DNA from: Phycisphaerae bacterium
Lineage (GTDB): Bacteria > Planctomycetota > Phycisphaerae > Phycisphaerales > SM1A02
Length of the DNA: 64,000 bases
NCBI GenBank assembly: GCA_002711415.1
Contig: PARI01000032.1
Location: 84,861-148,860, forward strand
Direction: 5' to 3'
The notes beneath the pieces are model-generated. The model saw only the letters and a program-made list of their open reading frames with translations. It did not search any database and was not told the DNA's origin. The position numbers and the translations under genes are program-made. Below are positions 24,001 through 45,816 of the stretch, piece after piece (position 1 is the first letter of the stretch; the number at the start of each line of letters is the position of its first letter).

Positions 24001-24609
24001 ATGAATCGCCTCAACGACGAAAGCCCCTTCGAGGACTACCGACAGCAGTTCGCTGCCGGTCGTTTCGGGATGATCCTCTTTCTGATCTCGATCGGGATGT
24101 TGTTCGCAGCGACCATCCTGTGCTATCTCTTCGTAAGAATAAATCCGGATCCAACCATACCGTGGCGACTGCCTGGAGAGCCCGGGCTTCCAGGACTCCT
24201 TGCAGCAAGCACGGTCGTGCTGGTGGTCTCATCCATAACCCTGTGGGCCGCCCAGGTCGCCATCGTCCGTGGAACCCAGACACGATGGCTGGCTGCCACA
24301 CTCGTACTCGGGCTTGTGTTCCTGTTGATGCAGGCGATCGCCTGGTGGCAGCTCTATTCCAAGCAGGTCACCATCACCGACGGTCTGTTCGCCTGGACCT
24401 TCTACGTGCTCACCGGGCTTCATGCCCTTCACGTGATCGGAGGGATCGTCCCGATGGCCGTGGTGACCCGAAGGTCCGCCAGAGGGATGTACTCCGCCGA
24501 TCACCATGACGGAATCACGTACTGCGCCATGTACTGGCATTTCCTGGATGCGGTCTGGATCATCCTCTATGCGACACTCTGGTTCGGTTCGCTCTCAGGT
24601 GCCGCCTGA
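24001..24609 (+). CDS. Second cytochrome c oxidase subunit III-like protein
   Basis: A second heme-copper oxidase subunit III homologue in the same operon (202 residues, five helices), without the insertion of the first. Seen: AAGRFGMILFLISIGMLFAA, PGLLAASTVVLVVSSITLWA, AIAWWQLYSKQV, then FYVLTGLHALHVIGGIVPMA and TYCAMYWHFLDAVWIILYA, the standard ending of the family. Tandem unequal subunit III genes are also known in other caa3/ACIII clusters. The start at 24001 follows subunit IV by 27 bases with GGAAGG just upstream. Its last 15 bases overlap the convergent gene at 24595. Confidence 0.9.
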   Translation: MNRLNDESPFEDYRQQFAAGRFGMILFLISIGMLFAATILCYLFVRINPDPTIPWRLPGEPGLPGLLAASTVVLVVSSITLWAAQVAIVRGTQTRWLAATLVLGLVFLLMQAIAWWQLYSKQVTITDGLFAWTFYVLTGLHALHVIGGIVPMAVVTRRSARGMYSADHHDGITYCAMYWHFLDAVWIILYATLWFGSLSGAA

Positions 24610-25194
24610 GAAGTCGTCACATGATCCGAACCGATCGTAGATCATCTGAAGATCGAGCGAGTTCCTGATCCCGTTGCCGTCGATGTCATGCCGTGATCCC
24701 GGAAGTCCCAGCACGATGCCGCCCCATGCCAGGTCATGCTCGTCGATGATTCCGTTCCCCGTGAAGTCCTCCGGACATTGTTCGTTGCAGAGAACCTTCG
24801 CTTCCGCGGCACACAGGGAATCCCAGCTCTCCAGGCAGCATCGAGGGTCGATGGTGCAGACCAGTTCACAGCAGTCCTGCTCTCCACAACCGCGCCCATC
24901 ATGGGATTGCAGGCAGGGTGCAGTCGTACTTCCGCAACTCGAGCACATGACGGTGGCCGATTCCACACAGAGCCGGTCCCATGACTGATCGCAGCAGTAC
25001 TGGTCATGCTCGCATACGAGGTTCATGCACCATCGGGTGCTGCATCCGGCTGTCGTCCCGCTGAGGTGACATGGGGACAGATCGACTCTCTCATCGGTGT
25101 CGTGCCCGAGTGTCATGGATGCGCCGGCCATCATCAGCACCACGGCCAGCAGGCCCCGGGGGGGGAAGTTCATCATGGTGCGCATGGTGGTCAT
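24595..25194 (-). CDS. Small secreted Cys-rich protein with two Cys modules and a dockerin-like end
   Basis: A 199-residue predicted exported protein of unknown function. After a signal segment (GLLAVVLMMAGASMTLG, about 14-30) come two copies of a Cys-rich module: residues 42-87 (RWCMNLVCEHDQYCCDQSWD inside) and 94-140 (QDCCELVCTIDPRCCLESWD). The same module occurs once in the protein at 35676 and five times in that at 37957. The C-terminal part has two calcium-loop half-repeats, DFTGNGIIDEHDLAWGG and DIDGNGIRNSLDLQMIYDRF, a degenerate dockerin pair. There are four possible Met starts within the first eight residues and no clear ribosome site. It is convergent with the oxidase operon, overlapping by 15 bases. 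Confidence 0.75.
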   Translation of the reverse strand: MTTMRTMMNFPPRGLLAVVLMMAGASMTLGHDTDERVDLSPCHLSGTTAGCSTRWCMNLVCEHDQYCCDQSWDRLCVESATVMCSSCGSTTAPCLQSHDGRGCGEQDCCELVCTIDPRCCLESWDSLCAAEAKVLCNEQCPEDFTGNGIIDEHDLAWGGIVLGLPGSRHDIDGNGIRNSLDLQMIYDRFGSCDDFSGGT

Positions 25195-35675: not shown

Positions 35676-37658
35676 ATGATGGAAACTCGTTTGATTCTTG
35701 GTGCTGGTATCAGTGCTCTCTCGATTGCACTGTGCGCACCCATGACGTTCGCACAAGATTGCGATGTCACCCCGCCAGCCGGTGCGATCGAAGCCGACGA
35801 TGGCTGTGATCACGGCACGGAAGTAGATGCCAATGGTGGCTGTAACGAGGACCCTGTCGCTTGGCAGGATCTCGGGTCACTGACCGAAGCTGACAACAAT
35901 GTCGCTGTCTACGGTACAGTCGGTGGTTGGATCACGCCTGCTGATACCGAATCTCGTGATCTTGACTGGTTCACGTTCACCGTCGACGGTCCGGTCACCT
36001 TGAGCGTCACGTTCGACACGGCCAGCGTCACTGACGGATTGCCCATGGCTGACTTTCTCTGGTTCGTGACCAATTCCGACTGTAGTGACCTGGTGGTCAT
36101 CGCCAGTGGCGTCAACACCAATCAGGAGTGCCCGCAGAGCATCGATCCGGTGGTTCTTCCTGCTGCTGGCACCTACGGCCTCGTCGTGACCGTCAATTGC
36201 TTCGGTACGGCCGATTGCACCCCCTGTCCTTCGGACTACCTTGCGAGGATTGTTGCCGAGTACAGCGAATTCCCCGACTGTGGTGATCCGGGTGCCGGTT
36301 CCTGCGTCGAGTCAAACGGATCCCCGGGCTGCGACGACTTCTCATGCTGCGAAGCTGTCTGCAACTTCGATCCGATTTGCTGCGAGTTCGAATGGGACGA
36401 CACCTGCGTCAACAACGCAGTCGACCTGTGCGGCTTCTTCATCTACGACTGCCCTGATGATCCTGCTGCTCCCAGCAACGACTGCCCGTCTGGCGCGATT
36501 GCTGTTGGTGATAACGAAGTTCTTTCCTTCGACACCGAGCTTGCCAATACCGTTGGCCCGGATGAGGCTGCCTGTGCATCCGGCGAGAATGACCTTCCCA
36601 TCTGGCGCGACCTCTGGTACTCCTGGACCGCTTCGGATGAAGGCACCATGACCGCCTCCACGTGTGGCATCGCTCAATTCGACACCAAGATTGCTGCATA
36701 CGATGTCACCGATCTGGTCGATTTTGGCGAACTGCCTCAGTTCATCATCACGTGCAATGAAGATTGCGTCGATGATCCTGAGTTCTTCTCGTCCGAGTTG
36801 ACCATTCCTGTCGAAGCAGGTCGCAGCTACCTCTTCAGGCTTGGTGGTTATCTCGATGCATTCGGCAGTGGCGATATCAGCTTCAACTACGCTCCGCCGG
36901 TTCAGCCGGACGAGTGTGACGAGCCTGGTTCAGCGTTTGCTACCAACAACGACTCGACTGATCTGACCCTCAACGGCATCGCTTGTGCTGGTGCTGGCAT
37001 CACGGTCAACAACGAGTATGCGACAATCATCGACCTGTCCGGTCTGGGCGAAGTCGAGATCCGCTGCGTTGAGTTCGGTTGGTTCAACACTGGTTCAAGC
37101 CTTGTCGGCAACATCAACATCTACAAGGATCTTGATGGCGGCGATCCCATTTCGCCGGACACCGACCTGGAACTGGCTGCAACCGACGAGATCCTTCTGC
37201 CTGCCACCGATGGCGTGGAGGTCGTCAATATCGCCAAGTTTGATCCGTATGTCTGCCTGCAGCCCGAGGCTGACGGCAGTCTCTTCATCGTTGTCGAACT
37301 CGCGATTCCTGCAAGCTCAGATGGCTTTGCCACCTTTGCAGGTAATGATGTGGGCGCAGCCTACGAGACCTACCTCAAGTCAGCTCCTTGTGGCCTGACT
37401 GAATACCTCAAGCTTGCAGACATCGGCTTCCCGGGCTTCTACTGGGTTGTCCAGGTCAACTACGAGGCGGGTTGTGGTGGCGGCGACACCTGCGTTGGTG
37501 ATATCAACGAGAATGGTGTTGTTGATGGTGAGGACCTCGGTATCATGCTCGGCCAGTGGAACGCGACCGGCTCGAACCCTGCTGATCTGAACGGCGATGA
37601 CATCGTCGACGGTGAGGACCTGGGTCTCCTGCTCGGCAACTGGGGCCCATGCGTCTGA
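35676..37658 (+). CDS. Large secreted protein with one Cys module and a dockerin-like C-terminus
   Basis: A 660-residue exported protein without a recognised enzyme domain. It has a signal peptide (ILGAGISALSIALCAPMTFA). Two regions (about 60-175 and 270-410) look like bacterial pre-peptidase or adhesive beta-sandwich domains (LDWFTFTVDGPVTLSVTFDT; LWYSWTASDEGTMTASTCG). Between them, residues 202-252 are one copy of the Cys-rich module (FSCCEAVCNFDPICCEFEWD). A third sandwich-like region follows, then the dockerin-like pair DINENGVVDGEDLGIMLGQW and DLNGDDIVDGEDLGLLLGNW. Composition is very Asp-rich and acidic, as in secreted marine proteins. A strong terminator follows 60 bases after the stop. 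Confidence 0.8.
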   Translation: MMETRLILGAGISALSIALCAPMTFAQDCDVTPPAGAIEADDGCDHGTEVDANGGCNEDPVAWQDLGSLTEADNNVAVYGTVGGWITPADTESRDLDWFTFTVDGPVTLSVTFDTASVTDGLPMADFLWFVTNSDCSDLVVIASGVNTNQECPQSIDPVVLPAAGTYGLVVTVNCFGTADCTPCPSDYLARIVAEYSEFPDCGDPGAGSCVESNGSPGCDDFSCCEAVCNFDPICCEFEWDDTCVNNAVDLCGFFIYDCPDDPAAPSNDCPSGAIAVGDNEVLSFDTELANTVGPDEAACASGENDLPIWRDLWYSWTASDEGTMTASTCGIAQFDTKIAAYDVTDLVDFGELPQFIITCNEDCVDDPEFFSSELTIPVEAGRSYLFRLGGYLDAFGSGDISFNYAPPVQPDECDEPGSAFATNNDSTDLTLNGIACAGAGITVNNEYATIIDLSGLGEVEIRCVEFGWFNTGSSLVGNINIYKDLDGGDPISPDTDLELAATDEILLPATDGVEVVNIAKFDPYVCLQPEADGSLFIVVELAIPASSDGFATFAGNDVGAAYETYLKSAPCGLTEYLKLADIGFPGFYWVVQVNYEAGCGGGDTCVGDINENGVVDGEDLGIMLGQWNATGSNPADLNGDDIVDGEDLGLLLGNWGPCV

Positions 37659-37746: not shown

Positions 37747-37956
37747 CGTGCCTTGGTGCAGTACATTCCAGTTCCCTGCTCTTGTGTACAGATCTGAATA
37801 CCGGACATTGCGGCATAAAATGTGTCCCATTGTGGGCTCAAGTCCAATATCAGTCTTTCGCATCACCCGGAGTCCGCTTATTCTAAATACATCGAAATGC
37901 CCACGCATTGACGACTCATGGGGTCCTTGCAAGAACACACAACTGTGGAGAAAGAG

Positions 37957-39810
37957 ATGTTTCATATCACTCATGCAAATATTCGTTGCACCTGTCTCTG
38001 GGCACTGTCAGCAGTGGCCATTTTGATGGTGTCATCAAACGCATTCGCCACTTACGGTGCATGTCCTGGTGCCGGCGACTGCTGCAGCCCCAACGGCAGC
38101 CCGAGCTGTGACGATGCTGACTGCTGTGAATCCGTCTGCGCCCAGGATGCATTCTGCTGCGAGACTGAATGGGACCAGTTCTGTGCCGATGCGGCTGCGG
38201 ATATCTGTGTTAATTGTGACGGTGGCGGTGGCGGCGGTGGTGGTGGCTGTGCCCCTGCATGCGGCAAGGACAACGTCGCCTGTCTTCCTGATGGATCGGG
38301 GCCTGCAGAAAATGCCCGACACGTTGGCCAGCTGCTCCTGAACGGATCGCCCTGGTGCACCGTCTGGATCGTTGCCAGCCCCAACCTGGTCATGACCAAC
38401 CAGCATTGTGTCGTCGGAGGAAATGCGAACCAGTTCTCGGTTCGTTTCAACTACGAATGTGATGCATGCACTGGTGGCAGCGAAGAATCCACGGTCACGT
38501 TCAACGTCACCGAGATCGTCGCCACCAATGCTGGTCTGGACTACGCGATCCTGAGATTGTCGGGTGATCCGGCCAGCCAGTTCGGCCAGGCCACCATCGA
38601 TCCGTCAGCTCACAGTGTTGGCACCGCGATCTACGAGATCCACCATGCCGATGGTGATGTCAAGGCCGTCGATGAGGGCCAGATCACCGCCCTGAACCAG
38701 GATGTCTGTGTCGACAACGAGTCGGCCGTGAGCGTGGTTGCTGCAGGCGGTGCCAGTGGTTCGCCCGTCTTCAGAACCGAGAACGACTGTGTGACCGGTA
38801 TCTGCAACTGTGGCCCGTTCTGTGCACCTGGCTTCATGGTTCCGATGTCGAACATCTGGCCGTCCGCCGGCCCCCAGATCGCAGCTGCAGGTGGCACCGT
38901 CCTCCTGTGCGGCGATGACCCGACAGAGTGCGGTGATCCCGGAACCGGGAGCTGCTTCGAGCCCAGTGCCACGCCGTTCTGTGATGATGCCGAATGCTGC
39001 AATGCAGTATGCAACACCGACAATTTCTGCTGCGAGACCGAGTGGGATGAGAAGTGTGCAGCCATGGCAGCACAGATCTGCGACACTCCATGTGGTGGTG
39101 ATTGCCTTGGTGATCTCAACTTCGACAACATTGTCAGTGGTGCCGACTTGGGGATTCTGCTTGCCAATTGGGACACCGATGGTTGTGGTGATCTGAACAT
39201 CGACGGCATTGTCGATGGCCAGGATCTTGGTGTCCTTCTCGCCCAGTGGGGCGAGTGTTCGCCGCCCAAGGGTGAATGTGGTGAAGTCGGCTCTGGGGAC
39301 TGCTGTGATCCCAACGGCACACCGTTCTGTGATGACGCGCTCTGCTGCGACCTGGTCTGCCAGTCCGATCCATTCTGCTGCGAATCCGAGTGGGACGACA
39401 CCTGTGCAGGTTCAGCTGGAGAACTGTGCGACTGCAGTGGCGGTGGTAACGAAGGTTGCGGCGAAGCCGGAACCGGCGACTGCTGCGAAGCGACCGGCAC
39501 CCCGTTCTGTGACGACCAGGTCTGCTGCGATGCCATCTGTGCGGCGGATGCGTTCTGCTGCGAGACCGAGTGGGACCAGATGTGTGCCGATATGGCCGCC
39601 AAGTCCGCTGACTGCGATTGCGGTGGCGGCGGCGGCGGCAAGGGATGCGGATCGCCCAAGTCGGGAAGTTGCTTTAAGCCCAATGGCTCCCCGTACTGCA
39701 ACGATGCAGCCTGCTGCGAGACGGTCTGTCTGGCTGATGCGTTCTGCTGTGATACCGAGTGGGACCAGATCTGTGCCGATGCGGCAGCGGACACCTGCGA
39801 CCAGAACTGA
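37957..39810 (+). CDS. Secreted V8-like serine protease with five Cys modules and a dockerin-like pair
   Basis: A 617-residue exported multi-module protein. Order: signal peptide (WALSAVAILMVSSNAFA); Cys module 1 (about 36-87); poly-Gly linker; an S1/V8-like protease domain with His about 150 (MTNQHCVVGG), Asp about 195 (LDYAILRL) and Ser about 267 (AAGGASGSPVF); Cys module 2 (325-379); dockerin-like pair at 383-433 (DLNFDNIVSGADLGILLANW, DLNIDGIVDGQDLGVLLAQW); Cys modules 3, 4 and 5 (441-493, 501-555, 564-614) separated by Gly-rich linkers. The dockerin pair is internal here, whereas it is terminal in the other proteins. The ATG at 37957 has GGAG 6 bases upstream; the frame start at 37918 would put 13 extra residues before the signal peptide. 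Confidence 0.83.
   Translation: MFHITHANIRCTCLWALSAVAILMVSSNAFATYGACPGAGDCCSPNGSPSCDDADCCESVCAQDAFCCETEWDQFCADAAADICVNCDGGGGGGGGGCAPACGKDNVACLPDGSGPAENARHVGQLLLNGSPWCTVWIVASPNLVMTNQHCVVGGNANQFSVRFNYECDACTGGSEESTVTFNVTEIVATNAGLDYAILRLSGDPASQFGQATIDPSAHSVGTAIYEIHHADGDVKAVDEGQITALNQDVCVDNESAVSVVAAGGASGSPVFRTENDCVTGICNCGPFCAPGFMVPMSNIWPSAGPQIAAAGGTVLLCGDDPTECGDPGTGSCFEPSATPFCDDAECCNAVCNTDNFCCETEWDEKCAAMAAQICDTPCGGDCLGDLNFDNIVSGADLGILLANWDTDGCGDLNIDGIVDGQDLGVLLAQWGECSPPKGECGEVGSGDCCDPNGTPFCDDALCCDLVCQSDPFCCESEWDDTCAGSAGELCDCSGGGNEGCGEAGTGDCCEATGTPFCDDQVCCDAICAADAFCCETEWDQMCADMAAKSADCDCGGGGGGKGCGSPKSGSCFKPNGSPYCNDAACCETVCLADAFCCDTEWDQICADAAADTCDQN
38062..39798 (+). repeat. Five copies of a Cys-rich protein module within one gene
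   Basis: Copies at 38062-38217, 38929-39093, 39277-39435, 39457-39621 and 39646-39798, each about 50-55 codons. Shared pattern: Cys-Gly, GxGxC, [ST]PxC[DN]D, a Cys-Cys pair, [VI]CxxDxxCC, xxWDxxC and an Ala-rich end with Cys. Eleven to twelve Cys per copy. Copies 3 to 5 are tandem; copies 1 and 2 flank the protease domain. Confidence 0.85.
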
Positions 39811-45390: not shown

Positions 45391-45468
45391 ACCATTCGCA
45401 GCTTTTAATCATGTGATTTCGCCCATCGAACAGGCCGCCCGTGGGGGCAGCCGGTTCCAACGGGCCAG

Positions 45469-45816
45469 TGGAGCCGGGGGGATTCGAACCCCCGTGCCGA
45501 TACAGTCAGCGCGCCGCGTCTACACGTGTAGTCGCCACTTGAATCTCGATTCCACCAATGCGGGCGACAGCACGCAGTGAAATCCAGGCATGCGAATTTC
45601 TCGTTTCTCCAGGGCATGCCAGCCCTTTGAAACCAGCCTGATGTTTTTCAATCCATCTCCGTATCAGGCATCTGGAGATGGATTGCGCGACGATATTAGG
45701 CCGCGAGAGCGTACTGCGGGTTGGCAGTTATGGTTTGCATCCTTTTTACGTGGCCAGGATGCTCCACGACGCGCAACGACGCACCTTCCCTGTCCGGTCG
45801 ATTCCAGGTCGGCCCC
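45469..45816 (-). ncRNA. ssrA: Transfer-messenger RNA (tmRNA, ssrA)
   Basis: A 348-base one-piece tmRNA that rescues stalled ribosomes. The 5' end GGGGCCGACCTGGAATCGAC (minus strand, from 45816) and the 3' end GGGGGTTCGAATCCCCCC then GGCTCCA (to 45469) form the tRNA-like half; GGGGCCG pairs with CGGCTCC through seven pairs including one G-U. The tag frame is visible: after CCATAACT a resume codon GCC starts A-N-P-Q-Y-A-L-A-A and then TAA, with the conserved YALAA end (nine encoded codons against ten in E. coli). The terminal CCA is not encoded; CTG follows the discriminator A. Identification is by direct comparison with the known tmRNA pattern. Confidence 0.95.

What the first reader, a model, noticed from the sequence alone, without database searches (positions are those of the whole stretch)
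38062..39798. An 11-12-cysteine repeat module, apparently undescribed, in a secreted protease
Seen: five copies of a 50-55-residue module in the protein at 37957, with the pattern GxGxC..[ST]PxC[DN]D..CC..[VI]CxxDxxCC..xWDxxC..A..C. The module also occurs in two neighbouring exported proteins (24595 and 35676), eight copies in 20 kb in all. Inference: a disulfide-stabilised adhesive or metal-binding unit used like a lego piece in exported proteins of this lineage. I know of no named domain with this Cys pattern, but could not search.
Basis: partly seen in the sequence, partly recalled or inferred. Interest (0 to 1): 0.8.

Follow-up and report, generated by a model that had tools for sequence, protein, structure and literature searches.

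The report
Undescribed disulfide-rich helical protein module
Exported proteins of one family of planctomycete bacteria, and of many myxobacteria, are built with up to about 120 copies per genome of a small cysteine-stapled domain that neither Pfam nor NCBIfam names; it most likely works as a tough, non-catalytic structural or binding bead.

Summary
Five copies of a 50-57-residue module with 10-12 Cys lie in the Trypsin_2-type exported protease at 37957-39810, one in the protein at 35676 and two in the protein at 24595 (minus strand). A profile built from the five copies alone finds the other three. Neither Pfam-A nor NCBIfam has a model that matches it, and nothing in the PDB matches by sequence or by Foldseek. 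The window's genome holds 76 copies in 26 proteins; 23 of these also carry dockerin-like repeats. In Planctomycetota the module was seen only in this one family (35 of 38 genomes; none among about 300 sampled genomes of other families). A homologous form is common in Myxococcota (70 of 237 genomes; profile-profile E = 2.7e-18), and two T4-like phage contigs carry it. AlphaFold2 gives the same confident three-helix layout for both bacterial forms (pLDDT 92 and 97). Cys residues are gained and lost in pairs, which points to disulfides. A 17-18-module protein keeps its repeat order across genomes. Best reading: an undescribed disulfide-stapled domain used as a structural or adhesive bead in exported proteins. 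Its ligand, if any, is unknown. Metal binding has no support.

The parts
37957..38049 (+). Signal peptide (probable) of the module-bearing protease: MFHITHANIRCTCLWALSAVAILMVSSNAFA
   Evidence: Read from the sequence: basic residue, hydrophobic stretch and A-x-A site; no dedicated predictor was available
38053..38220 (+). Module copy 1 (12 Cys)
   Evidence: HMM E = 3.7e-24 (this copy is in the training set); alignment A1
38365..38793 (+). Trypsin-like peptidase domain (PF13365)
   Evidence: Pfam E = 8.5e-14, residues 150-292 of the 37918 ORF
38920..39090 (+). Module copy 2 (11 Cys)
   Evidence: HMM E = 1.7e-29; E = 2.0e-25 in the own-genome search
39100..39261 (+). Dockerin-like paired Ca-loop repeats
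   Evidence: Weak phmmer matches to dockerin chains in the PDB, residues 395-448, E = 0.05 to 0.7; repeated DLNxDxxVxGxDLGxLLxxW motif read in the sequence; dockerin-like motif in 23 of 26 module proteins
39268..39438 (+). Module copy 3 (12 Cys); query of the structure prediction
   Evidence: HMM E = 6.7e-28; AlphaFold2 pLDDT 92.2, pTM 0.78
39448..39618 (+). Module copy 4 (12 Cys)
   Evidence: HMM E = 2.7e-27
39640..39807 (+). Module copy 5 (10 Cys)
   Evidence: HMM E = 1.8e-28
35676..37658 (+). Exported 660-aa protein with one module, a PPC-like region and a dockerin-like C-terminus
   Evidence: Dockerin_1 E = 0.016 and PPC E = 0.049, both below the Pfam cut-off
36273..36437 (+). Module copy in the 35676 protein
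   Evidence: E = 1.2e-18 with a profile built from the five protease copies only
24595..25194 (-). 199-aa exported protein: two modules and a dockerin-like C-terminus
24931..25086 (-). N-terminal, divergent module (9 Cys) that lacks both the first Cys and the second Cys of the CC pair
   Evidence: E = 3.4e-7 with the profile of the five protease copies
24775..24945 (-). Second module of the 24595 protein
   Evidence: E = 2e-7 with the profile of the five protease copies

Best explanation
The module is a self-folding extracellular domain of about 55 residues: an N-terminal loop region followed by three helices, stapled by five (sometimes six) disulfides. Shown here: the sequence family, its distribution, the paired Cys changes, and a confident predicted three-helix layout shared between two phyla. 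Inferred: that the Cys are all in disulfides, and what the domain does. The most likely job is non-catalytic and structural. It acts as a rigid, protease-resistant bead that spaces, presents and probably attaches exported enzymes and binding domains at the cell surface or in the extracellular matrix. It is used singly or in short runs next to proteases, lectins and beta-propellers, and as an ordered rod of 17-18 beads in one conserved protein. Whether the beads also bind a ligand (glycan, protein or matrix) is open; binding by at least some of them is likely, because positions in the long array are individually conserved.
For: Copies and family; reversed and shuffled ORFs give 3 and 4 hits at E about 1 or less, best 0.0029, against 668. 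Disulfides: the extra Cys after GxC goes with an extra C-terminal Cys (32 with both, 46 with neither, 23 with one; Fisher 5e-10); the first Cys goes with the second Cys of the CC pair (phi 0.45), and the GxC Cys with the PxC Cys (phi 0.52). Most isolated copies with a Cys-free flank have exactly 10 Cys (29 of 45, strictest setting). The genome encodes a DsbA-like thioredoxin (Thioredoxin_4, E = 9.9e-22). Fold: pLDDT 92.2 and 96.9 for an independent Myxococcota alignment, with helices at equivalent places. Non-catalytic role: the module is joined to trypsin-like, M43 and S8 peptidases, C-type lectin, galactose-binding-like, FG-GAP, Kelch, SBBP propeller and CHRD domains. Non-Cys positions vary freely apart from a few (G, P, D, V, D, W, D, A). 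Rod: ten 15-19-copy proteins share repeat order (34 of 45 pairs at p <= 0.001) although repeats within a protein are no more alike than repeats of different proteins (0.32 against 0.30).
Against: There is no experiment. No coordinates could be read from the models, so the disulfide pairing is only partly inferred. Sequences are related, so the Cys co-variation p-values overstate independence. Phage-borne copies would be made in a reducing cytoplasm. Signal peptides could only be judged crudely: 22 of 26 module proteins against 28 of 59 background reading frames. Three module proteins, among them the 18-copy one, lack the dockerin-like tail in the test used.
Confidence: 0.6

Rival explanations
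1. The modules act as inhibitors or pro-parts that hold the neighbouring proteases inactive, like Kazal, TIL or other small disulfide-rich inhibitor domains.
For: In the window and in L204 a module sits directly in front of the trypsin-like domain; M43 and S8 peptidases carry modules too, and the M43 fusion occurs in both phyla.
Against: Most of the 26 module proteins of the genome show no peptidase domain; modules are also joined to Kelch, CHRD, lectin and propeller domains; the long array has no recognised enzyme. No conserved exposed loop of inhibitor type was seen.
Confidence: 0.1
2. The module proteins form a covalently cross-linked, Cys-rich protein coat or wall, a counterpart of the Cys-rich YTV wall proteins of Planctomycetales.
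For: Cys-rich YTV wall proteins are described as restricted to Planctomycetales (PMC8567305), so this family could use another protein coat; copy numbers of 76-120 per genome and the conserved 17-18-module rod suit a structural mass protein.
Against: Cys are even in number in most isolated copies and change in pairs, as expected for bonds within the module; the number of copies varies from 0 to over 100 among genomes of the family; several carriers are enzymes.
Confidence: 0.15
3. The module binds metal (metallothionein-like or zinc), as the first reader suggested as one option.
For: High Cys content; net charge about -6 per module.
Against: The module proteins look exported and Cys are gained and lost in pairs; a marginal Metallothio_Cad match for one of 58 copies has E = 3.9; the fold is predicted as helical and compact.
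Confidence: 0.05
4. The module is a secreted toxin-like or antimicrobial peptide domain.
For: Small Cys-rich secreted domains often are; many myxobacteria prey on other bacteria (general knowledge).
Against: Tens of copies as parts of large, varied proteins and ordered 17-18-copy arrays; no immunity or processing pattern was looked for; no defensin or toxin match in Pfam or the PDB.
Confidence: 0.05

Closest known systems
TIGR04201 Cys-rich tandem repeat of myxobacterial TraA
   Same: Cys-rich tandem repeat in exported myxobacterial proteins, suggested to act as a rigid stalk (PMC3325183)
   Different: Three invariant Cys in that repeat against ten here; NCBIfam release 20 gave no match at E up to 10 to any variant of the module
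YTV-domain Cys-rich cell-wall proteins of Planctomycetales
   Same: Cys-rich, extracytoplasmic, planctomycete-specific proteins (PMC8567305)
   Different: Described as confined to Planctomycetales; the module lies in another lineage of the phylum and in Myxococcota. The YTV sequence itself was not compared
Small disulfide-rich extracellular modules in general (EGF, granulin, defensin, LDLR-A, TIL)
   Same: Works alike as a mobile disulfide-stabilised building block of exported proteins
   Different: No match to any of their Pfam models, no PDB sequence or Foldseek match; predicted helical with two adjacent-Cys pairs, unlike the beta-rich EGF or granulin types
Dockerin type I repeats
   Same: Occur in the same proteins, usually at the C-terminus
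   Different: A separate domain; the module lies outside the dockerin-like stretch

Membership tests
EGF, granulin, defensin or any other Pfam Cys-rich family | Match to the family's curated Pfam model | tested here: not met
   58 copies and 8 variant copies scanned; only single chance-level matches with E = 0.2 to 5.5, all under cut-off
NCBIfam Cys-rich repeats (TIGR04201, TIGR02232 and others) | Match to the NCBIfam model | tested here: not met
   No family at E up to 1 for the three window proteins and up to 10 for nine single copies
A fold already solved | Structural match in the PDB | tested here: inconclusive
   Foldseek best E = 7 and none; Foldseek is weak for domains of 52-59 residues, and VIA-align had at most three chains to look at
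One homologous family shared by Planctomycetota and Myxococcota | Significant profile-profile similarity | tested here: met
   hhalign probability 99%, E = 2.7e-18 over 50 columns
One homologous family shared by Planctomycetota and Myxococcota | Same predicted secondary structure layout | tested here: met
   Helices 25-34, 37-40, 45-55 against 19-27, 30-33, 38-48; offset of 7 residues, equal to the offset of the VC..D..CC...WD..C core. Coordinates were not compared
Disulfide-bonded module | Cys paired with each other | tested here: inconclusive
   Indirect: Cys co-occur in pairs, 29 of 45 isolated copies have 10 Cys; no chemical evidence
Covered by SMART, PROSITE, CDD, Gene3D or other InterPro members | Match to a model of those libraries | not testable with these tools
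   Only Pfam, NCBIfam, PHROGs and PADLOC are offered; the last was not searched

The most novel reading that the evidence does not exclude
An unnamed domain superfamily with its own small helical disulfide fold is a main building block of the exported proteome of one planctomycete family, where a conserved 17-18-bead rod forms part of a surface scaffold. Myxobacteria share the domain, and T4-like phages have taken it up to display on their virions for attachment.
Probability: 0.25. Interest if true: 0.75.

Novelty: new variant of a known kind. Interest (0 to 1): 0.55.

Why it matters
A domain present in up to 120 copies per genome, without a name in the two main curated libraries searched here, leaves a large part of the exported proteins of these bacteria unannotated. 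A model for it would annotate many proteins in Planctomycetota and Myxococcota and point to how these bacteria build surfaces and hold exported enzymes. The ordered 17-18-module protein is a concrete target for asking what the surface of these cells is made of, and the phage copies suggest a role in binding. The fold is small, predicted with high confidence and readily testable.

Tried and rejected
Plasmids and annotated phages gave no match. A first parity script miscounted Cys and was replaced. The crude signal-peptide test does not separate well from background. A tree of single modules is poorly resolved (7 starred of 162 branches), but labels cluster by phylum (10 changes against 54 in shuffles). 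Metallothionein-like metal binding, defensin/EGF/granulin membership and a protease-inhibitor role were considered and set aside or ranked low. Literature searches for a description of the module found none; only open-access papers are held. A marginal BFVD match (best E = 0.24) to proteins of uncultured viruses was not pursued beyond the contig searches.

Full report
Observation. The window ORF 37918-39810 (probable start 37957) encodes an exported protein of 617-630 residues with five copies of a Cys-rich module around a trypsin-like domain (Trypsin_2, E = 8.5e-14) and dockerin-like repeats. One more copy lies in the protein at 35676-37658 and two in the protein at 24595-25194 on the minus strand. 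Their alignment has 11 invariant columns: seven Cys, two Asp, one Trp and one Ala. A profile made from the five protease copies alone finds the other three copies at E = 1.2e-18, 3e-7 and 2e-7; the best score among 20 shuffles of all window reading frames is 10.9 bits against 26-98 bits for the copies. The stated number of Cys needs a small correction: the core has 10, and many copies have 12.

Not in the curated libraries searched. Pfam-A and NCBIfam have no model for the module. The three window proteins, 58 copies and eight to nine variant copies were scanned with E up to 1 or 10, and only single chance-level matches appeared. Profile searches of PDB sequences gave nothing useful, and Foldseek against the PDB gave a best E of 7 for one model and nothing for the other. 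Foldseek is weak for such small domains, so a new fold is possible but not shown. No paper describing the module was found in the held library. The Cys-rich repeat of myxobacterial TraA is another family, TIGR04201, with three invariant Cys (PMC3325183), and NCBIfam did not match.

Distribution. The window's genome (2.80 Mb, 45 contigs) has 76 matches at E <= 0.01, in 26 proteins counting those of the window. Of 37 genomes of the same family examined, 34 have matches (up to 107), and none of 24 from other families of the order. An even draw of 294 Planctomycetota genomes gave matches only in the two of this family, both with the planctomycete profile and with the myxobacterial one. In the phylum of Sorangium 70 of 237 genomes match the myxobacterial profile at E <= 0.001. 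The two profiles are homologous: hhalign E = 2.7e-18. In a tree of 165 copies the phylum label changes 10 times against about 54 in shuffles; the tree is poorly resolved, so this shows clustering by phylum with few crossings, not their direction.

Fold. AlphaFold2 with 97 aligned copies gives pLDDT 92.2 and pTM 0.78 for window copy 3, with helices at 25-34, 37-40 and 45-55. A separate run on 30 Myxococcota copies, headed by a Sorangium copy, gives pLDDT 96.9 and pTM 0.79, with helices at 19-27, 30-33 and 38-48. The shift of seven residues is that of the shared VC..D..CC...WD..C core. The conserved Asp before the second helix and the Asp of WD just before the third fit helix N-caps (inference), and the invariant Trp fits a core residue. 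Coordinates could not be read, so the two models were not superposed and no disulfide was read from them.

Disulfides. Cys co-occurrence supports pairs: the extra Cys after GxC with an extra C-terminal Cys (Fisher 5e-10); the first Cys with the second of the CC pair (phi 0.45); the GxC Cys with the PxC Cys (phi 0.52); and the first Cys of CC exchanged for a Cys three residues on, one helix turn further, in the CVC variant (phi -0.67). The window shows one such paired loss itself: the N-terminal copy of the 24595 protein lacks both the first Cys and the second Cys of CC. Among isolated copies 29 of 45 have exactly 10 Cys at the strictest setting; part of the odd counts comes from Cys just upstream, as seen in the listed examples. 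Relatedness inflates these p-values. The full pairing remains undetermined.

Use in proteins. The module is joined to trypsin-like, M43 and S8 peptidases, C-type lectin, a galactose-binding-like domain (PF23759), FG-GAP and PPC-like regions in the window's genome, and to M43, Kelch, SBBP propeller and CHRD domains in Myxococcota. The M43-module combination occurs in both phyla (L207, L119). A dockerin-like motif is found in 23 of 26 module proteins against 1 of 59 other reading frames. The genome has one cohesin-like match, in a 1369-aa frame that also holds dockerin-like stretches, no VKOR and one DsbA-like thioredoxin. The variety of partners argues against a catalytic or purely inhibitory role.

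The ordered array. Ten proteins from as many assemblies hold 15-19 modules almost head to tail; the own one has 18 (L211, G000:C28). Repeats within a protein are no more alike than repeats of different proteins (0.32 against 0.30 outside Cys columns), yet equivalent positions in different proteins match each other: 34 of 45 protein pairs have a diagonal score not reached in 1000 permutations of repeat order, with offsets of 0 or 1 among those pairs. Linker lengths of L211 and L140 also agree at the start (0,0,0,0,4,3,0). An old array whose order has been kept points to selection on each bead, which favours a scaffold or multi-site binding rod over a loose spacer.

Phage copies. About ten virus contigs encode the module. 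In L084 and L074 the carrier lies among genes for T4-like structural proteins (tail sheath, portal, scaffold and major head protein in L084; portal in L074). In L084 the carrier is an RCC1-type propeller protein. This fits a virion-borne binding part but is only a hint, and the cytoplasm in which virions form is reducing.

Verdict. What it works like: the mobile disulfide-stabilised modules of extracellular proteins. What it belongs to: no known family tested. The most likely role is a structural or adhesive bead; the ligand is unknown and metal binding is unsupported. It is best called a new domain family, that is, a new variant of a known kind.

Noticed in passing
L084:444-14437 and L074:44-5275 (IMG/VR contigs): Module-bearing proteins encoded inside T4-like structural gene sets (tail sheath, portal, scaffold, major head protein); in L084 the carrier is an RCC1-type beta-propeller protein with two modules.
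   Followed up: partly
L211:2258-6946 (+), G000:C28: 18-module protein of the window's genome; its repeat order is shared with similar proteins of other assemblies.
   Followed up: yes
L206:3079-15791 (G000:C30): Five module-bearing genes in a row within about 13 kb, with related PPC-like and other unannotated domains.
   Followed up: partly
window 36945-37480 (residues about 425-600 of the 35676 protein); also in L206:8531-10576 (twice) and L206:3079-5268: A recurring domain of about 150 residues (GIACAGxGITxxNxY...NIYxDxDGG...GLxEYxxLADIGFPxxHWV) without a Pfam match where scanned.
   Followed up: no
G000:C32:4023-6428 (-): One 1369-aa frame holds a cohesin match (E = 1e-5) and three dockerin-like stretches, the only cohesin match in the genome.
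   Followed up: no
L134, L154 (titled Singulisphaera sp. GP187) and L202 (titled Bifidobacterium breve): Bins whose titles do not fit the module's distribution; probably misnamed assemblies.
   Followed up: no
window 45468-45816 (-): tmRNA gene with tag peptide ANPQYALAA.
   Followed up: no
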